Shown here: positions 4,834-27,882 of the stretch, one piece after another | Layout: the number at the start of each line of letters is the position of its first letter | How positions within the stretch are numbered: position 1 is the first letter of the stretch | Source: Chloroflexota bacterium | GTDB taxonomy: Bacteria > Chloroflexota > Dehalococcoidia > Lucifugimonadales > UBA1127 | NCBI GenBank assembly: GCA_026713825.1 | Contig: JAPONS010000017.1 | Span: 1 to 33,449, forward strand | Length of the DNA stretch: 33,449 bases | Reading direction: 5' to 3' | Program-made: the position numbers and the translations under genes | Notes under the pieces: model-generated | Databases searched by the model: none | What the model was told of the DNA's origin: nothing | What the model saw: only the letters and a program-made list of their open reading frames with translations

Positions 4834-6423
4834 CTACCCCGCCGACGACTCCACGATGGGCTGCGCCAGGATCCACAGGCTCACCATCGTGTACGCCACC
4901 ATCAGCGCAAGCATCGGGTACTGGCTGCGCAGCGCGTGACGCCGCTCCGGGATCTCCCGCAGCGCCGTCACGTGCGCGAGGTACACTGCCGCCACGTGCC
5001 CCACGACGATCGCCGCCACCGACAGCAGCCACACCGTTCTCGCTCCGATGATGCCGATGTCTATCTCGTATCCTGCGGTGCCGAAGATGTCCCACCCCAG
5101 ACCAAACGGGTCCGAGGCCAGCGGGATGACGTTCTGCCCCTGGATGAGCAGGAACGAGAAGAAATGCGCCAGGTGGTAGGCCAGTGCGATGGGGATTAGG
5201 GGCAACACAAAGAATTTCGCCGCCTCCGCGGAAAGCAGCCGGTAGCCGCTGGCTGCGGACATGAGCCCGGCAAACGTCATGTAGACCGCGATGACCGTTG
5301 TGAAGAACCCCAGCAGCCCTATGGTGCCCACGGTATTGGCGTCCCGGAACACGTCGAACAGCGCGTTGAACAGCCGCCCCCACGCAGGCGTCGCGGAGAA
5401 CCCGTCAAAGCTCACCGTGGACAGCAGCAGCAACACGAACACCATAACGGACGTCGAGCGCCCCTCGCCCCGCAGCAACCCCACCACGTACGGCCGCACG
5501 TTCAGCTCCCGTTGCTCCGGCGCCGCCGCCGTGAAGCACGCGGCGCAGTCGACGCACCCGTCGTCCTCGCCGCGGCAGTCCACCGAGCATTCCTCGCACA
5601 CCGAGTCGTCCGTCACCCGCAGCTCCGTCGGCGAAAACCGCGCCAGGAACCCGAAGACCAGCGAGAATGCGTCGCCATGCCGCAGCCACGCCTCGCGCCC
5701 GAACATGAACATGCCCGCCCACATGTACACCGTGTACAGCAGCGCAAACTGCGTGATGCGCCCCGGCAGCGGCGACTCGATGTAGACAATCTCCACCCAT
5801 GCGAAGACCAGAAAAGCCAGCGCCCCGGGCCAGACCCCAAGCGATGCCGGATACCTCAACCCCATGCCTAGCTCGCCGTCCCCGCTGATGGCCCGGTATG
5901 CCCGCTCCGCCCACGCGAACGTCGCGTTCCACGGGTTCATCAGCCGCCAGACGTTTCCGGCAAGTGCTGAGACGTACGCCATCCCCACCCACCAGATGAC
6001 CCACACCAGCGTCGGGGATATGTTCATCGACGCTTCCGGTGTGCCGGACAACCCCGCGGCAACGGCAAACGACTCCAACGCCGGCCCCCAGGTATTCACC
6101 AGACCCGCGGCGATGACCAGCGCCAGCACGCCCACCGAAGCCGCCTGCACCGCCGTCACGACCGCCGGGTGCACCGCGAAGCGGACCGCTCGCCACCGCA
6201 AAAGGTTGAAGCGAGGGTACCCACCGCCGCCCTCCGCGCCCCTGACAAAGACCCCCATGATGACGAAGGACAGCGCCACGGCCGCACCCGCGCCGACTAC
6301 GTACAGGCTCAGCGGCACCGGCAGGTCGTACCGCTCCCCAAAGCCGTGGGCCGCCGCGGGGTAGACGGCCAGCGCCACCCCCACGGCAACCGCGATAATC
6401 GAGATCCTGCTGAGTATCCTCAC
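4834..6423 (-). CDS. Polytopic membrane protein with six-Cys loop
   Basis: 529 residues with a cleavable-looking N-terminus ending PAAAHGFGERYDLPVPL and about eleven further hydrophobic segments. The HG-GERYDLPVPL start resembles actinobacterial membrane proteins that databases label fenitrothion hydrolase; that name has little functional meaning. A hydrophilic loop at about residues 275-297 carries six cysteines in the spacing C-x2-C-x3-C-x6-C-x2-C-x2-C among acidic residues, suggesting a bound metal or Fe-S centre. The gene starts at GTG with GAGGG upstream and is the last of four on this strand, after a cupredoxin-like lipoprotein and a His-rich protein, so a role in copper or other metal transport is inferred. 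No substrate can be named. Confidence 0.7.
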   Translation of the reverse strand: MRILSRISIIAVAVGVALAVYPAAAHGFGERYDLPVPLSLYVVGAGAAVALSFVIMGVFVRGAEGGGGYPRFNLLRWRAVRFAVHPAVVTAVQAASVGVLALVIAAGLVNTWGPALESFAVAAGLSGTPEASMNISPTLVWVIWWVGMAYVSALAGNVWRLMNPWNATFAWAERAYRAISGDGELGMGLRYPASLGVWPGALAFLVFAWVEIVYIESPLPGRITQFALLYTVYMWAGMFMFGREAWLRHGDAFSLVFGFLARFSPTELRVTDDSVCEECSVDCRGEDDGCVDCAACFTAAAPEQRELNVRPYVVGLLRGEGRSTSVMVFVLLLLSTVSFDGFSATPAWGRLFNALFDVFRDANTVGTIGLLGFFTTVIAVYMTFAGLMSAASGYRLLSAEAAKFFVLPLIPIALAYHLAHFFSFLLIQGQNVIPLASDPFGLGWDIFGTAGYEIDIGIIGARTVWLLSVAAIVVGHVAAVYLAHVTALREIPERRHALRSQYPMLALMVAYTMVSLWILAQPIVESSAG

Positions 6424-6444
6424 AATGCCCTCGCTCCCACCATG

Positions 6445-7215
6445 CTAGGGCCTGACCTCAAACCGCCCAAGCTCCGCCTCGACGGTTGCCGCGTCCTCCG
6501 CGCCCTCATCGTGCCCGCCCGTGTCGTCCCCGCCCGGCACGGTCACGGTGATTGTATCCTCGACCACGTTGCCGCCGACGGTGTACTCCGAGTGGTTGTT
6601 CGCGTTCAGCGTCACGCGGACTGTCCGCTCCCCCGGCTCAACCGGGCTGACGTGGTAGTGCTCGCCGTACGGCCGGCCCACCTTCACGCCGTCCACGTAG
6701 ACGTGCGCGTGCCCGTTGCCCTGCACGTGCGCGTCGCCCACCTGCTCCGGCGCGAAGGTGAAGTTCGTCGTCGATATCCGCACGTTCAACCCCGCCACCG
6801 AGTCCGGCACGGCCTCAACCGACACGCTCATCCCCTCCGGAGCCTCCACCCCTGCCGCATGGTCGGCCTCGTGGTCACCTGACGCCATTCCTGGCGCGGC
6901 GTGGTGGATGGTGATGGGGAAACTGCCCGTCGCGTTCGCCGTGAAGATGAACGTCGCCGGATCGCCCGGCTCGATGTTCTCCTCGAAGTCGTAGCCGTGC
7001 AGGTGGAAGTTGACCGGCTCGTCGGACCGCACGATCATCGTGACCCTGTCGTCCGCGTTGACCTGCCACCCTGACGTGCTTCCGGCAAGCTGACCTCCCT
7101 CCAGCTCGATGTTGATCGTGTGCTCCTGCGGTTCTCCCCCGCCGCCGCATGCGGCCATCGCCAGCGACAACGCCAGCGCGGCCGCCGCCGCCAGGAGCAT
7201 TCTCATTCGCTTCAT
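6445..7215 (-). CDS. Cupredoxin-like lipoprotein, His-rich
   Basis: 256 residues with a lipoprotein signal ending in LAMAAC-GGGG, so probably anchored on the outer face of the membrane. The first domain (about 30-125) has cupredoxin-type strands, with FHLHGYDFE and FPITIHH as likely metal ligands. A Gly/His/Glu linker (GDHEADH) leads to a second beta domain with a GNGHAHVYVDG strand, GEHYH and NANNHSEY, a pattern seen in exported copper-associated proteins. The start ATG at 7215 follows GGAGAGAGC. The stop is 21 bp before the membrane protein and the start 13 bp after the YtkA-like gene, so the cluster is probably one operon. Copper binding is inferred from the ligands and not shown. Confidence 0.72.
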   Translation of the reverse strand: MKRMRMLLAAAAALALSLAMAACGGGGEPQEHTINIELEGGQLAGSTSGWQVNADDRVTMIVRSDEPVNFHLHGYDFEENIEPGDPATFIFTANATGSFPITIHHAAPGMASGDHEADHAAGVEAPEGMSVSVEAVPDSVAGLNVRISTTNFTFAPEQVGDAHVQGNGHAHVYVDGVKVGRPYGEHYHVSPVEPGERTVRVTLNANNHSEYTVGGNVVEDTITVTVPGGDDTGGHDEGAEDAATVEAELGRFEVRP

Positions 7216-7228
7216 TGCTCTCTCCGAT

Positions 7229-7798
7229 TCAACTCTGAGGGCGGCGTCCGCGAGCCCGTCGCCGCCGCCCAAACATTCGATTGCCCAGCGTAAACCCAAA
7301 GATCCCCAGCGCCACCACAATGAGCGCAATCAGCGTCAGACTCGCCCCGCCGGCCTCCACCACCGGGACCGCGAAGGTCGCCCGCTCGCTCCCAAGCGCG
7401 GAGTCGACGGTCAGCGTGAACTCCCACAGCCCCGCCGTCTCAATTGGCAGGTCCGCCGCGTACCAGAGCGGCCCCTCCAGCGTCCCGTACCCCTCGACCG
7501 GCCCCACATCGAGGCCCCCATCGCCGGTGAACGCGCCCTGCATCGTGATCGCGGGGTCCGCGACCGCCGTTTCCTCTCCCGCGGTCGCAAGGAAGATGAT
7601 GAAGTGCATCGGCCCCGTGACGGGCGTCGTCGACACCGTCAGCCGGTACGCCCCAACCTCTCCCGCGAAGACCTCGCGGCTGCCGACGTGCACCCCGTTC
7701 GCGTCCGCCGGCGCCGCCGAGCTCAGCAGCAGCACGACGCCAATCACGACGCCGAGCGTCATGCGCATGCCGAGGACAAGTGCACCGGTCGAGGTCAT
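7229..7798 (-). CDS. YtkA/FixH-like exported protein with C-terminal anchor
   Basis: 189 residues: a signal peptide ending near ADA at about residue 33, an Ig-like beta domain (GEVGAYRLTVSTTPVTGPMHF to LWEFTLTV), and a C-terminal transmembrane helix (LTLIALIVVALGIFGF) followed by an Arg-rich cytoplasmic tail. Size and strands fit the YtkA-like/CopC-like group, but the paired His/Met ligands of CopC are not obvious. The start at 7798 is chosen over 7828 because GGGAG lies just upstream. The stop is 13 bp from the lipoprotein start, supporting cotranscription. The function is unknown and association with metal handling comes from context only. Confidence 0.6.
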   Translation of the reverse strand: MTSTGALVLGMRMTLGVVIGVVLLLSSAAPADANGVHVGSREVFAGEVGAYRLTVSTTPVTGPMHFIIFLATAGEETAVADPAITMQGAFTGDGGLDVGPVEGYGTLEGPLWYAADLPIETAGLWEFTLTVDSALGSERATFAVPVVEAGGASLTLIALIVVALGIFGFTLGNRMFGRRRRARGRRPQS

Positions 7799-7869
7799 TC
7801 TCCCGCTCTCTCTCAACGCGGCATTCAAGCCGCCTCGAACGCTGTTGCTGCCACTAGCCGTGGTCGTAA

Positions 7870-8295
7870 TCAGAGAGCGGGGCGGGGCGGAGGCGTGTCG
7901 ATGCCCGGCGTGAACCGCGAGAGCGTGTCGCGCCAGGGGGTTCGAACCAGAATGAAGAGGGCCGGGGCAAGCAACGCCAGCGTGGCCGCCTCGCCCAGCG
8001 AGACAAGGTTGAAGACGCTTGCGCCCGTTATGTCATTGGTGGCGGGCACGATCACCACGCCATCCGCCGAGACGGGCATGCCTGCTGCGTGCCCGTGCTG
8101 CGTCTCGTGGCCGTGGTCGTGCTCGACGGCGACGCCGCCGGGGAAGAGGTGGCCGTGCTGCGGGTGACGCTCGACGGCGTGGTGGTCCATCGCGGGAGCG
8201 AGCGCGGGGAACAGCGCCGCCCACACCACCGCCATGAACAGCGCCGTGAACACGGCGCTCGCGCTGCGGCGCGTGGCAATTCCGGGCAATATCAT
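7870..8295 (-). CDS. His-rich membrane protein
   Basis: 141 residues. A hydrophobic N-terminal segment (14-35) is followed by a His-dense stretch with ten histidines between residues 38 and 69, including DHHA, HPQHGH, HDHGH and TQHGH. A second hydrophobic segment (about 100-120) and a polar tail complete it. Such stretches bind Cu, Ni or Zn; which metal cannot be told. It is the first gene of the minus-strand cluster. The ATG at 8295 precedes the signal-like segment, whereas the ATG at 8364 would put about 23 polar residues in front of it and approach the divergent pyrD start. No family name is recognised. Confidence 0.6.
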   Translation of the reverse strand: MILPGIATRRSASAVFTALFMAVVWAALFPALAPAMDHHAVERHPQHGHLFPGGVAVEHDHGHETQHGHAAGMPVSADGVVIVPATNDITGASVFNLVSLGEAATLALLAPALFILVRTPWRDTLSRFTPGIDTPPPRPAL

Positions 8296-10682: not shown

Positions 10683-10717
10683 AAGAGCAAGGTTGCAACC
10701 TTGCTCTTCCGCTTTTT
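10683..10717 (+). terminator. Intrinsic terminator of the rplT operon
   Basis: AAGAGCAAGG (10683-10692) pairs perfectly with CCTTGCTCTT (10699-10708), the TTGCAA loop is itself palindromic, and a run of five T (10713-10717) follows. This is a textbook rho-independent terminator. Confidence 0.92.
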
Positions 10718-10776
10718 CTGGGGCAAGTGAATCAAATGAGCCGCAATGGGAAAAAGATAGACGATGGAAATTACAG

Positions 10777-11415
10777 GTGAGTAATACCCTCTACTTATTC
10801 CTTGACGAATCAGGTGACTTGGGCTTTGGCCCAAAGGCCTCCCGATTCTTCGCCTTAACTAGCGTTGCAATGTACAGGCCGTTCCAAGGTGGCGCTGCAC
10901 TGGATGACCTCAGATACGATCTTCTTGAGAAGGGTGTGGCTCTGGAGCAATTCCACTGTGCCAACGACAATAGGCACGTCCGCTCACAGGTGTTCGAGGT
11001 CATAGCCGAGAACCTGGGGAACTGGCAGATTGACACCTGTGTCATTGAGAAGCGCAAGACGCACCCTTCGCTGCACCAACACTCCTCTTTCTACACTGCC
11101 ATGTTTGCTGCCTTCCTTAATTCAGTCTCGTGGCCGGACATGGTGCGGGATGCCCACGAGGTGATCATCATCACAGATGCACTGCCAGTACGGGGCAAGC
11201 GCAACGCAGTCCAGAAGGCCCTGCAAGGAGTAATGGCACATACCATGCCCAACACCATCAAGTACAACCTGCTGCACCACCAATCAAGCTCTCACTACGG
11301 GTTGCAGATTGCGGACTATTGTGGATGGGCGGTTTTTCGGAAGTTTGAGTATGGTGACCCAGAGGCGCACAACAAATTGCGCCATGCTGTCAACAGCGAG
11401 ACTCTCATTCCATGA
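10777..11415 (+). CDS. DUF3800 family protein
   Basis: 212 residues from GTG 10777. The N-terminus LYLFLDESGDLGFG carries the DUF3800 hallmark D-E-S-G-D. Further family blocks are FHCANDNRHVR, a central VIEKRKTH strand, IITDALPVRGKRN and the C-terminal QIADYCGWAVFRKFE with its acidic residue. The fold is thought to be RNase H-like, so nuclease activity is possible but not established. DUF3800 genes are often found with mobile or defence genes. This one is alone, has visibly lower GC and less C-ending codon use than its neighbours, and is followed by two structured repeats. No strong ribosome-binding site is seen, so the start is uncertain; the frame is open back to about 10693. Confidence 0.82.
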   Translation: MSNTLYLFLDESGDLGFGPKASRFFALTSVAMYRPFQGGAALDDLRYDLLEKGVALEQFHCANDNRHVRSQVFEVIAENLGNWQIDTCVIEKRKTHPSLHQHSSFYTAMFAAFLNSVSWPDMVRDAHEVIIITDALPVRGKRNAVQKALQGVMAHTMPNTIKYNLLHHQSSSHYGLQIADYCGWAVFRKFEYGDPEAHNKLRHAVNSETLIP

Positions 11416-11697: not shown

Positions 11698-13524
11698 CTA
11701 CAACGCCCCGTCCCCCATGATCACCGCAAACAGCAGCGCCAGGTACAGCAGCGAGTACCGGTATATCGGCGCAGCCGCCCGGGGCCCGGTCTGCCGGAAC
11801 AACCGCAGCGCGTACCCGATGAACCCCAGTCCGAGCACACTCGCGCTCACCAGGTACACCAGCCCCAGGCTGTCCGTCGCCAGGTAGAGCAGGATCGTGA
11901 GCATCGTCAGCGCCAGCGTGTACAGCAGGATGTGCCGCCGTGTGCTCTCCTCGCCCGCGACCACCGGCAGCATCGGCACGCCCGCCTCCGCGTAGTCGCG
12001 CCGGATCAGCAGCGCCAGCGCCCAGAAGTGCGGCGGCGTCCAGAAGAAGATGATGGCGAACAGGTAGAACGCAGGCAGCGTCAGCCCGCCCGTCACCGCG
12101 GCCCAGCCCACCAGCGGCGGCACCGCCCCCGCCGCTCCGCCGATGACGATGTTCTGCGTCGTCGTCCGCTTGAGCCACTTGGTATAGACCAGCACGTAGA
12201 AGACGGACCCCGCCATGGCCAGCGACGCCGCCAGCAGGTTCGCGCCCCACAACAGCAGCGCGAACGCCAGCACGTTCAGCGCGAGCCCGAACACCAGCGC
12301 CTGCCGTCCCGACCCCCGCTCGCTCGCGACCGGCCGCGACGCTGTTCGTCCCATCTTTCGATCGATGTCCCTGTCGAGCCAGTGGTTGAGCGCGCTCGCC
12401 CCCCCGGACGCCAGCGCGCCCCCGAGGATTACCGTCGCGATGAGCCCCGCCCCCGGCAGACCCTCCGCCGCCAGCACCATGCCGCCGAACGCCGTCACCA
12501 GCAGCAACGACATCACGCGCGGCTTTGTCAGCGCCACGTAGTCGCCGATGACCGTGCGAAGCGTACCGCCCGGAGCCTCTGTGGCCGCGGAACTCGCCCC
12601 GCCATCACTTGTCGGCGAAGCCGCGGCGCCCTCCTCCGGCGGCATCCGCGCCGCCACGACAGCCATCGCGATCAGGTGCCCCCACAGCGCCGACGCCAGG
12701 CTCAGGTGGACCACCCGCGCCGCCGCCGCGAATTGGAACCACGGGTTGGCCGCCCCCGCCAGCACCTGCGCGACAACCAGCGCCGCCGCGCCTATGCCCA
12801 TGCCCGCCAGAGCCCGCGACCGCCCCTTGAGCCGTCTCGCCTGCAGCGCCGCCACGATGATGTACACCCCGCCCAGGCCCGCGATGGCCCGGTGCGCCAT
12901 GTGCTCCCACTGCAGCCCGAAGTTGGGCAGCCAGTCGCTCGTGCACAGCGGCCACGAGGGGCAGATCGTGCTCGCGCCGCTCCCCACGATGTAGGTGCCC
13001 GACAGCAGGATGACCATCGACACCGTCGCCATTGTGATGACCGTCTTGAAGTACGGGTCCCGCTGCCCGCGCGGCCCCTCCGCCGTCGCCGGGCGCGCAA
13101 TCAGCAACGCCACGATCAGCATCGCGAACAGCGTCTCGGCGGCGAACAGGTGCAGCGTGACTATCGGCGCCGGCAGCTCCGTCAGCACCGTGATGCCGCC
13201 CAGCACCACCTGCACCGCCAGCGCCACAACGGCGACGGCCATGAGCCGCTTCAGCCCCGTCGACTCGCGGTGCCGCGTCCACACCAGCATGGCGCACGCC
13301 GCCACCAGCACGCCGACGACGCTCGCAACAAGCCGGTGGGAGTATTCGATCAGGACGTGGTACTCGAACGGGGGGATGATCTGTCCGTGGCAGAGCGGCC
13401 AGTCGGGGCAGCCGAGTCCCGACTCCGTCGCGCGGACCAGGCCGCCCAGCGTGATGAGGCCAAACGTCACCGCAACTGTGACGGCGAGGAGGACTCGCAA
13501 ACTGACGAAGGATGAAGCGTTCAC
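11698..13524 (-). CDS. ctaA-ctaB: CtaA-CtaB fusion: heme A synthase / protoheme IX farnesyltransferase
   Basis: 608 residues joining two enzymes. The N-terminal half is CtaA/Cox15-like: GGLVRATESGLGCPDWPLC near 30, EYSHRLVAS near 60 and EHMAHRAIAG near 205 supply heme-ligand His residues, with a second CPSWPLC cysteine pair near 188. A Ser/Ala/Gly linker (about 303-325) leads to CtaB/Cox10: LTKPRV, the prenyltransferase block NHWLDRDIDRKMGRT near 380 with its Asp pair, YTKWLKRTT, and FFWTPPHFWALA. Heme B is farnesylated to heme O and then oxidised to heme A for the adjacent oxidase. The order in the protein is opposite to that of the pathway. GTG at 13524 is preceded by GGTGG; a TTG at 13539 is possible. 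The gene is last in the cox operon, 66 bp after coxIV. Confidence 0.93.
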   Translation of the reverse strand: MNASSFVSLRVLLAVTVAVTFGLITLGGLVRATESGLGCPDWPLCHGQIIPPFEYHVLIEYSHRLVASVVGVLVAACAMLVWTRHRESTGLKRLMAVAVVALAVQVVLGGITVLTELPAPIVTLHLFAAETLFAMLIVALLIARPATAEGPRGQRDPYFKTVITMATVSMVILLSGTYIVGSGASTICPSWPLCTSDWLPNFGLQWEHMAHRAIAGLGGVYIIVAALQARRLKGRSRALAGMGIGAAALVVAQVLAGAANPWFQFAAAARVVHLSLASALWGHLIAMAVVAARMPPEEGAAASPTSDGGASSAATEAPGGTLRTVIGDYVALTKPRVMSLLLVTAFGGMVLAAEGLPGAGLIATVILGGALASGGASALNHWLDRDIDRKMGRTASRPVASERGSGRQALVFGLALNVLAFALLLWGANLLAASLAMAGSVFYVLVYTKWLKRTTTQNIVIGGAAGAVPPLVGWAAVTGGLTLPAFYLFAIIFFWTPPHFWALALLIRRDYAEAGVPMLPVVAGEESTRRHILLYTLALTMLTILLYLATDSLGLVYLVSASVLGLGFIGYALRLFRQTGPRAAAPIYRYSLLYLALLFAVIMGDGAL

Positions 13525-13590
13525 GCCGCACCACCGCAACGGTTGCGCAGGAGATGCTCCTTGGTGCGGACGGCGTGCAAGGCTTCTCTG

Positions 13591-17781: not shown

Positions 17782-18636
17782 CTACCACCGTCGCGGCCCG
17801 CTCACCGCCCGCCCCTCCAGCCGCCGCATCCGCTGGTCGTCCCGGTGCAGCATGACAAAGAACAGTATCGTCAACACCGTGAAGTAGATGCCCGCCCCCG
17901 GTATCCACATGATCAGCCCCGCAATCATCTGGTCCTCCCCCGGCGTTAGCCCCCACAGCCGTGGCACGCCCAGGTAATACGTGTACAGCACGTCCTCAGA
18001 CAGCGTGATGATCGCCGCCAGCGCCGTGCTCTGCAGCGTCGCCAGAAAGAGGTACAGCAGCCGCAGCGCGTACGAGAGTCTCGGCTTGAGCGGCACCGGA
18101 TCGATGGCCGTCCACCAGAAGAACACCGCCGCGCTGACGAACATCATGTGTTGCAGGAAGTGCAGCGCCTCGTTCGTCACCGCCTCGTTGTACAGCGCCG
18201 GGATGTGCCAGATCCATACAGTGAACACGAAGACCAGCCATGCCGTAAGCGGCGACGCCAGGAAGTTCAGCGCCTTCCGCACCCGGCGCATCTGCAGCAG
18301 CGGAATCGCCAGGTCGTCGCGAAGGATACGCGGCAGCCCCCGCAGCGCCGGCACCACTGGCGCGCCAACCAGAATCAGCGGCGGCCCCACCATCATCATC
18401 AGCATGTGCTGGATCATGTGCATCAGGAAGAGGTCGTCGGAGAGCCCGTCGACGGGCGAGACCGCCCCGAGCAACAGCGCGCTCCACCCGGTGTAGAACG
18501 CGGTCGGCCGCCACCATGGAAAGAGGTCGCCTGAACGCCCCCGGCTGCGCCATAACCCGCGAGTATAGAGCGCAATCAGGACAAGCAGCCCCGCCAGCGT
18601 AAACGGATCAAAGGTCCACGTGTTCCAGAAGGTCAT
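17782..18636 (-). CDS. ctaG: Cytochrome c oxidase assembly factor CtaG (caa3 type)
   Basis: 284 residues with about seven membrane helices. Family blocks are TAFYTGWSALLLGAVSPVDGL, the His/Met-rich LFLMHMIQHMLMMMVGPPLILVGAP near 70-92, a VFTVWIWHIPALYNEA block near 138 and ALHFLQHMMFVSAAVFFWW near 160. This family helps deliver copper to caa3 oxidases in Bacillus and relatives, consistent with the caa3-type operon beside it. The C-terminus is cytoplasmic and Arg-rich. It is transcribed in the same direction as the cox genes but separated from coxB by hairpin repeats and a promoter. Confidence 0.92.
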   Translation of the reverse strand: MTFWNTWTFDPFTLAGLLVLIALYTRGLWRSRGRSGDLFPWWRPTAFYTGWSALLLGAVSPVDGLSDDLFLMHMIQHMLMMMVGPPLILVGAPVVPALRGLPRILRDDLAIPLLQMRRVRKALNFLASPLTAWLVFVFTVWIWHIPALYNEAVTNEALHFLQHMMFVSAAVFFWWTAIDPVPLKPRLSYALRLLYLFLATLQSTALAAIITLSEDVLYTYYLGVPRLWGLTPGEDQMIAGLIMWIPGAGIYFTVLTILFFVMLHRDDQRMRRLEGRAVSGPRRW

Positions 18637-26777: not shown

Positions 26778-26838
26778 GCGGTCATTCATTGGGCCGCTGT
26801 GCATTCGTAGTCGCCGTGCGGGTGTTGAGGGGGAGGAT

Positions 26839-27882
26839 ATGGCACAGAGTCCTGTCAGATTGACAGAGCTTGCCCACTGCGCCGGCTGAGCCGCCAAGTT
26901 CAGCCCGGAGGATCTGGGCCAAATTCTCAGTCAACTGCCCCGCATGACCGACGCCGACCTTCTCGTCGGCACCGAGACCGGGGACGATGCCGCTGTGTAC
27001 CGCATCTCCGACGACCTGGCCATCATCCAGACCGTGGACTTCTTCCCGCCAATCGTCGATGACCCCTACGCCTACGGCGCAATTGCCGCGGCCAACTCGC
27101 TCTCAGACGTGTACGCCATGAACGGCATGCCCATCATCGCATTGAACATCGTCGGCTTCCCCGTTTCCCTCGACAAGCAGATCCTGACCACGGTGTTGAA
27201 GGGTGGTTATGACAAGGCCGCGGAGGCCCATGTGCTCATCGCCGGCGGTCACACGGTCGACGATGCCGAGCCCAAGTACGGGCTCGCCGTTACCGGCATC
27301 GTCCGCCCCGGCGACCACATCACCAACGCCGCGGCTCGTCCCGGCGACGTCCTCGTGCTCACCAAGCCCATCGGTACCGGCATCATCACCACCGGCGCCA
27401 AGGCTGGAGTGACCCCTGCGAGCGTCCTTGACGAGGCCGTCAAGCACATGGCGGCCCTGAACGCCAACGCCGCCGAGTCGATGCGTCCCGCCGGCGTCAA
27501 CGCCTGCACGGACATCACCGGTTTCGGCCTGCTCGGCCACCTGCGCGGCATGGTCGCGGCGAGCGGAGTGGCTGCGAAGCTCTCCCTCGGCGCCGTCCCC
27601 GTGATGGACGGCGCGTGGGACCTGTTGGAGCAGGACATTGTGCCGGGCGGCACCCGCCGCAACCTGGAGTCAATGGCAAGCACAGTCCGCTGGGATGAGG
27701 GAATATCGGACGCGGCCAAGCTGCTGCTCTGCGACGCCCAGACCTCCGGCGGCCTGCTCATGTCCTTGCCCCGGCAGCGCGCGCCCGGGTTGATCGACTC
27801 CCTGAAGTCCCACGGCGCCATGGGCTACCGCATCGGCGAGATAGTCAAGTCCCGCGACACCTACATAGAGGTGACCTCGTAG
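26839..27882 (+). CDS. selD: Selenide, water dikinase with in-frame UGA (Sec17)
   Basis: Makes selenophosphate from selenide and ATP, the selenium donor for selenocysteine and selenouridine. The frame from ATG 26839 (GGGGAGG just upstream) reads MAQSPVRLTELAHCAG, then TGA at 26887-26889, then AAKFSPEDLGQIL and the whole of SelD without another break. The TGA is codon 17 and Lys is codon 20, the positions of catalytic Cys17 and Lys20 in E. coli SelD, so selenocysteine is the natural reading. Downstream motifs fit the family: TGDDAAVY, TVDFFPPIVDDP, ANSLSDVYAMNG, GGHTVDDAEPKYG and TDITGFGLLGHL. Length 347 aa. The first ATG after the TGA (26944) would delete the active site. Its own product is needed to make its Sec, a natural feedback. 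Confidence 0.93.
26887..26929 (+). promoter_or_regulatory. Candidate bacterial SECIS hairpin
   Basis: Starting at the UGA, the RNA can pair UGAG (26887-26890) with CUCA (26926-26929), AAGUU with AAAUU apart from one G-A mismatch (26896-26900 / 26921-26925), and GCCC (26903-26906) with GGGC (26916-26919). This leaves the apical loop GGAGGAUCU. Bacterial SECIS elements sit directly 3' of the UGA with a G-rich loop about 16-37 nt away, as here. Pairing was done by eye and no energy was calculated. Confidence 0.65.

What the first reader, a model, noticed from the sequence alone, without database searches (positions are those of the whole stretch)
4834..8295. Four-gene membrane cluster with His-rich, cupredoxin-like and six-Cys proteins: possible copper system
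Genes are close and codirectional: a protein with ten His in 32 residues, a YtkA-like protein, a lipoprotein with two His-rich beta domains, and an ~11-helix protein with a C-x2-C-x3-C-x6-C-x2-C-x2-C loop. Together they look like capture of a metal outside the membrane and transfer through it. The oxidase encoded 4 kb away needs copper. None of the four has a firm functional name, so this may be an undescribed metal transporter.
Basis: inference. Interest (0 to 1): 0.6.

Follow-up and report, generated by a model that had tools for sequence, protein, structure and literature searches.

The report
Undescribed bacterial copper-handling gene set
Four neighbouring genes in an uncultured bacterium appear to encode a small copper-handling system whose central membrane protein belongs to a widespread, unnamed family related to iron-sulfur electron-transfer proteins but with histidines in place of their cysteines, which matters because few bacterial copper-uptake routes are known.

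Summary
Four codirectional genes (A His-rich, B weakly YtkA-like, C cupredoxin-like lipoprotein, D polytopic membrane protein with a six-Cys loop) lie at 4834-8295, minus strand. The order A-B-C-D recurs in 15 Dehalococcoidia loci with differing flanks; C-D recurs in other phyla. D has no Pfam or NCBIfam name and no PDB match above noise. H420, H476, H484 and M508 are invariant in 110 relatives. C keeps H-x-H. The Cys loop is all-or-none.

The copper reading gains strong circumstantial support. In eight genomes lacking His-type D, gene A heads A-X-CopC/CopD instead. CopC-CopD fusions sit inside some D operons. D lies beside copper monooxygenase genes on actinobacterial plasmids. Copper genes flank 23 of 40 Chloroflexota D-superfamily loci against 0 of 40 random regions.

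D is the His branch of a superfamily whose other branch is NapH-like; its six Cys align with six of eight ferredoxin Cys. C is homologous to that branch's CuA-type partner. Both lack the redox ligands and carry His instead. D is not CopD.

I favour a copper-binding lipoprotein feeding a copper permease. Copper handling is likely (about 0.75); transport is plausible (about 0.5). It is a new variant; function is not shown.

The parts
7870..8295 (-). Gene A: small membrane protein (about 141 aa) with DHH-x2-ER-x-P-x-H-x-H motif and His-rich tail
   Evidence: family alignment A4 with H37, H38, P44, H46, H48 invariant or nearly so; no Pfam hit; in genomes lacking His-type D it precedes X-CopCD
8089..8184 (-). 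Ten His in 32 residues of A
   Evidence: direct reading of translation
7229..7798 (-). Gene B: secreted or C-terminally anchored protein, weakly YtkA-like
   Evidence: 26 relatives aligned, 6 hit YtkA PF13115 weakly
6445..7215 (-). Gene C: two-domain lipoprotein; first domain cupredoxin-like, homologous to CuA-type proteins but without CuA ligands
   Evidence: H71, H73, G74, Y75 and G97 invariant in 45 relatives, H104 nearly so
6988..7005 (-). H-L-H-G-Y-D motif of C (residues 71-76), candidate copper ligands
4834..6423 (-). Gene D: polytopic membrane protein, His branch of a NapH-like superfamily
   Evidence: AlphaFold2 model pLDDT 90.6; superfamily relatives in 75 of 301 Chloroflexota genomes and other phyla; hhalign to Fe-S branch E 4.4e-44
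5536..5598 (-). Six-Cys loop of D (residues 276-296), aligned with six of eight ferredoxin Cys of the Fe-S branch
4900..5166 (-). Stretch holding invariant H420, H476, H484 and M508 of D (TM8-TM10)
   Evidence: 110 of 110 relatives; helices
8302..8331 (-). Weak sigma-70-like promoter match just upstream of A (9 of 12)
   Evidence: consensus match only

Best explanation
A-B-C-D is an extracytoplasmic copper-handling operon. C, a cupredoxin-like lipoprotein outside the membrane, binds copper through three His (H71, H73, H104). It hands the metal to D, whose outward-facing H26/E211/D340 and membrane-embedded H420/H476/M508 and H484 form a path through the membrane. The loop on the opposite (inferred cytoplasmic) side, where it is kept, offers six Cys. 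A and B are accessory outer-face copper binders. D occupies the slot that CopD takes in related operons but is not CopD; it is built on a NapH-like scaffold that lacks the Fe-S ligands and carries His/Met instead. Shown: operon conservation, residue conservation, homologies, copper-gene context. Inferred: copper binding, direction (import or supply to copper enzymes), topology.
For: Order A-B-C-D in 15 loci with differing flanks; C-D overlap by 4 nt in Actinobacteria. Invariant His/Met in D and HxH in C. A precedes X-CopC/CopD in eight genomes lacking His-type D, one of them cut off after X; A-B-X-CopCD-D hybrids; CopC+CopD+cytochrome c fusions in the D operons of L045, L047, L097, L152. CuMMO clusters in M. 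dioxanotrophicus, M. chubuense NBB4 and Rhodococcus WAY2; CopC, metal-sensitive regulator, COX III and COX assembly genes in M. gallinarum. Copper genes near 23/40 D-superfamily loci vs 0/40 random regions, p=2.6e-9. CtaG directly beside D in several families. Paired absence of CX2CP/CX3CP in D and of CuA ligands in C, with His in both.
Against: No biochemical data. Proteobacterial and Nitrospinota C-D pairs mostly lack copper-gene neighbours (10 of 80 named loci have any) and sit by catabolic, YncE-like or EamA genes. Three His, a Met and cytochrome c fusions would also fit a redox protein. No coordinates were available to test whether the invariant residues line one path. seeds came partly from D loci, and 9 of the 23 positives are Fe-S-branch PCYCGC loci. 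Gene calls were made by a simple home-made finder.
Confidence: 0.5

Rival explanations
1. D is a membrane reductase or electron-transfer protein (CcoG/NosR-like in role) that reduces Cu(II) or passes quinol electrons to the periplasmic partner C; the invariant His would bind heme b in place of Fe-S clusters.
For: Homology to the NapH-like Fe-S branch; NosR and NapH share this module (PMC5928378); CcoG, with two tetranuclear Fe-S clusters, reduces Cu(II) (PMC7558416); a heme-type PepSY_TM protein supports copper oxidases in Bordetella (PMC13038864); CcoG is absent in 121 Chloroflexota; cytochrome c fused to CopCD and to one C (L087).
Against: All CX2CP/CX3CP Cys are gone in 110 of 110; most members lack the ferredoxin loop; C has no CuA ligands left.
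Confidence: 0.22
2. The module does not move copper across the membrane but loads copper into membrane copper enzymes (oxidase, CuMMO) from outside, in the manner of CtaG, Sco or PCuAC proteins.
For: CtaG adjacent to D in several families; CuMMO clusters; COX1 in 71 of 75 D+ vs 180 of 226 D- genomes, p=0.002.
Against: The invariant residues lie deep in several helices, unexpected for a mere docking protein; D is absent from most oxidase-bearing genomes.
Confidence: 0.18
3. The metal or substrate is not copper (Zn, Ni, Hg or an organic ligand), with the copper neighbours reflecting only general metal stress islands.
For: Catabolic and non-copper contexts in Proteobacteria, Nitrospinota and haloarchaea; a CbtA family protein near D in M. 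rufum.
Against: Specific CopC/CopD replacement beside A; CuA/cupredoxin ancestry of C; CuMMO context.
Confidence: 0.1

Closest known systems
CopC/CopD (PcoC/PcoD, YcnJ) copper uptake or resistance proteins
   Same: Outer copper-binding beta protein plus His-bearing polytopic membrane protein; occupy the same operon slot next to gene A; co-occur in hybrids
   Different: No detected sequence relation: C lacks PF04234, D lacks PF05425, hhalign D vs CopD E 0.42
NapH / NosR / CcoG membrane Fe-S proteins
   Same: Homologous scaffold through the Fe-S branch found here; linked to copper enzymes (NosZ, cbb3 oxidase) in the literature (PMC5928378, PMC7558416)
   Different: D lacks every CX2CP/CX3CP Cys and at least two ferredoxin Cys; has invariant His/Met instead
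CuA domain proteins (COX2, NosZ C-terminal domain, L061 partner)
   Same: C aligns with the CuA partner of the Fe-S branch, E 3.8e-14
   Different: CuA Cys/His/Met ligands absent; HxH...H instead
CtaG (Caa3_CtaG) oxidase assembly factor
   Same: Polytopic; copper-oxidase context; sometimes adjacent to D
   Different: D has no PF09678 match; the window encodes a separate CtaG at 17782-18636

Membership tests
CopC/CopD | CopC domain PF04234 in the periplasmic partner | tested here: not met
   C and 44 relatives give Cupredoxin_1 and Cu-oxidase hits, no CopC among the families listed
CopC/CopD | CopD domain PF05425 in the membrane partner | tested here: not met
   No Pfam hit in D and 79 relatives beyond one DUF2917; hhalign vs CopD alignment E 0.42
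NapH/NosR/CcoG | Two CX3CP motifs in the membrane module | tested here: not met
   0 of 110 His-branch members have a CX3CP motif, 17 of 17 Fe-S branch members have at least one
NapH/NosR/CcoG | Two 4Fe-4S ferredoxin motifs (eight Cys) | tested here: not met
   Six or no Cys in D; the fourth Cys of the second motif is Ala or Ser where the loop is kept
NapH-like superfamily (common descent) | Full-length profile similarity | tested here: met
   A8 vs A7 hhalign 100%, E 4.4e-44, 438 columns; Fe-S members hit TIGR02163 up to 4.6e-17, below its curated cut-off
Cupredoxin / CuA | Cupredoxin-like sequence | tested here: met
   24 of 45 relatives hit PF13473, best 2.7e-12; the window protein itself is below the curated cut-off
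Cupredoxin / CuA | CuA ligand set (H, C-x3-C, H, M) | tested here: not met
   Alignment with CuA partners
Caa3_CtaG | PF09678 in D | tested here: not met
   No hit in D
YtkA | PF13115 match for B | tested here: inconclusive
   6 of 26 relatives, best 6.3e-5; window B none
Known membrane folds in PDB | Significant fold match of D | tested here: inconclusive
   Best Foldseek E 0.03 with TM about 0.13; VIA best Z 5.6, rmsd 9.9, 136 aligned
Copper transporter | Copper binding and transport | not testable with these tools
   Needs biochemistry

The most novel reading that the evidence does not exclude
D is the founder of an undescribed class of copper permease that arose from a NapH-like Fe-S electron-transfer membrane protein. 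It and its CuA-type partner lost their redox ligands together and gained His/Met copper ligands, so an electron-transfer pair became a copper-transfer pair now spread over Chloroflexota, Proteobacteria, Actinobacteria, Nitrospinota and haloarchaea.
Probability: 0.35. Interest if true: 0.78.

Novelty: new variant of a known kind. Interest (0 to 1): 0.6.

Why it matters
Inner-membrane copper import in bacteria rests on very few characterised proteins; a 2020 review names CcoA-type MFS importers and says others likely exist but are uncharacterised (PMC7558416). A widespread, unnamed C-D pair that stands in for CopC/CopD would give a testable candidate for copper supply to oxidases and hydrocarbon monooxygenases. 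The paired loss of redox ligands would be a clear case of an electron-transfer scaffold turned into a metal-transfer one.

Tried and rejected
Cys loop as the conserved functional core: rejected, because it is all-or-none and absent in more than half of relatives. D as a CopD homologue: rejected. A cleaved N-terminal His brace at H26: not general, since several relatives carry HGF near the N terminus without an obvious signal peptide. Operon link to the nearby oxidase: rejected as general, since proximity recurs in few loci. My recollection that relatives of D are annotated 'fenitrothion hydrolase' found no support in papers or plasmid annotation, where listed hits are 'hypothetical protein' or unannotated. 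PDB sequence search with the D profile gave nothing. Foldseek and VIA matches of D are at noise level. First alignment was too diverse for the collection scan. Literature searches for SAR202 copper, the actinobacterial hmo cluster and novel copper transporters gave no description of the system.
Full report
Observation. The window carries four codirectional minus-strand genes: A 7870-8295, B 7229-7798, C 6445-7215 and D 4834-6423, with gaps of 71, 13 and 21 nt. A has ten His in 32 residues. D has C276-x2-C279-x3-C283-x6-C290-x2-C293-x2-C296. Neither A, B nor D of the window matches Pfam or NCBIfam; C has weak cupredoxin and multicopper-oxidase hits. The AlphaFold2 model of D from 80 sequences is confident (pLDDT 90.6, pTM 0.89): a signal-like helix at 2-19 and ten long helices. 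C is predicted as two beta domains behind a signal helix (pLDDT 87, pTM 0.54).

Conservation of order. D-superfamily relatives occur in 75 of 301 Chloroflexota genomes, on actinobacterial, rhizobial, Variovorax and haloarchaeal plasmids, and in Dehalococcoidia/SAR202, Nitrospinota, Rokubacteria, Tectomicrobia and Proteobacteria. Around 80 named-genome loci plus the window, A-B-C-D is complete in 15 loci, all Dehalococcoidia-type or unplaced Chloroflexota; B-C-D occurs in 6 more; C lies directly before D in most others. Flanks differ (trpB, purine genes, DHODH and others), so the set travels as a unit. In the window genome D is single copy. In actinobacterial plasmids C and D overlap by 4 nt.

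Residues. Over 110 relatives, H420, H476, H484 and M508 are invariant; Y416 and D340 occur in 109, E211 in 108, and H26 in 104 of the 105 rows that cover it. From the helices, H420, H476 and M508 fall mid-helix in TM8, TM9 and TM10, and H484 lies about two turns further along TM9; that they line one path is inference, because no coordinates were available. In C, H71, H73, G74, Y75 and G97 are invariant and H104 nearly so in 45 relatives; mycobacterial C keeps H-x-H as HVHSVPEH.

The Cys loop. It is present with all six Cys in about 40 of 110 relatives and mostly deleted in the rest, scattered over the tree (10 changes). Another branch of the same superfamily (L059-L068, L073-L076, L078) has CX2CP and CX3CP motifs and an eight-Cys ferredoxin loop; members hit Fer4_5 and NapH models. 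Profile comparison of loop-bearing D with that branch gives E 4.4e-44 over 438 columns, with the six Cys of D on six of the eight ferredoxin Cys. D lacks the CX2CP and CX3CP cysteines in every member: position 163 is mostly Asn and position 251 is always Glu or Asp. NapH, NosR and RdhC are known to share a membrane module with two CX3CP motifs (PMC5928378), and CcoG, with two tetranuclear Fe-S clusters, is a cupric reductase needed for full cbb3 oxidase activity (PMC7558416).

The partner changed in parallel. In the Fe-S branch the neighbour is often a CuA-type protein (L061_13 hits CoxB and NosZ models). C is homologous to it (hhalign 98%, E 3.8e-14) but has none of the CuA ligands and carries H-x-H...H instead. 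Thus both members of the pair lack the redox ligands that their relatives have, and both have new conserved His. That the Fe-S state is ancestral is inference, since no NapH outgroup was placed in the tree.

Copper context. (i) A occurs in Dehalococcoidia genomes without His-type D, and in eight such loci it precedes X and CopC/CopD (L206-L211, L214; L212 is cut off after X) (CopC and CopD Pfam hits in L206). L213 is unclear. (ii) Hybrids carry B (and A in some), X and a CopC-CopD-cytochrome c fusion just before D (L152, L103/L215, L097; L092 without visible A or B), and in another class CopC-CopD fusions, in one case also a second CopC, precede C-D (L045, L047). (iii) On plasmids D lies by copper monooxygenase genes in M. 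dioxanotrophicus, M. chubuense NBB4 and Rhodococcus WAY2, and by CopC, a metal-sensitive regulator, COX III and a COX assembly gene in M. gallinarum. (iv) Copper-related genes lie within about 9 kb of D in 23 of 40 Chloroflexota loci (both branches) against 0 of 40 random regions of the same or sister genomes (p=2.6e-9); seeds came partly from D loci, nine of the positives are Fe-S-branch PCYCGC loci, and related genomes are not independent. (v) COX1 is in 71 of 75 D-bearing and 180 of 226 D-less Chloroflexota (p=0.002). Against: named proteobacterial and Nitrospinota loci mostly lack copper neighbours (10 of 80 named loci have any).

Mechanism. I judge copper handling likely (about 0.75). Within it, a lipoprotein C delivering copper to a permease D fits best: D takes CopD's place beside A, has invariant His and Met inside the membrane, and has acidic and His residues on the H26 side. 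D is not CopD (hhalign E 0.42). A reductase role with heme, or enzyme loading from outside, remain real rivals.

Novelty. The family lacks a Pfam or NCBIfam name and a PDB relative by sequence, and gives no fold match above noise (the tool warns that this does not show a new fold). I found no paper that describes it, within the open-access library searched. It works like CopC/CopD in context but is of different descent. I file it as a new variant of a known kind.

Limits. Gene calls outside annotated records came from a simple home-made finder. No coordinates were available for distance tests. Function rests on context and conservation only.

Noticed in passing
window 26824-27882 (+): selD gene with an in-frame TGA at the catalytic site (HCAGUAAK), so probably a selenoprotein; the ordinary ORF call starts too late at 26944. 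The genome has a tRNA-Sec above the Rfam cut-off.
   Followed up: partly
window 11698-13539 (-): CtaA and CtaB fused into one 613-aa protein (COX15-CtaA plus UbiA domains).
   Followed up: no
L206-L212, L214 (X gene, e.g. L207:9243-10289): Unnamed secreted protein X (about 205-350 aa, mature start near AHExRDVG) follows gene A and precedes the CopC-CopD-cytochrome c fusion, with a tiny membrane protein beside it in several loci.
   Followed up: partly
L059-L066, L073, L074: Fe-S branch of the D superfamily sits mostly with PCYCGC lipoproteins and CuA-type proteins, and in some loci HMA chaperones: an unnamed candidate electron-transfer or copper operon.
   Followed up: partly
L101, L119, L121, L125, L136, L137, L145, L151, L154, L155: In Proteobacteria a YncE-like beta-propeller gene lies divergently beside C-D in ten loci; meaning unknown.
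   Followed up: no
window 10693-11415 (+): DUF3800 gene between the ribosomal protein L20 gene and the oxidase cluster.
   Followed up: no
L087:6768-7772: A C-type cupredoxin domain fused to a cytochrome c domain upstream of D, hinting at a redox step.
   Followed up: no
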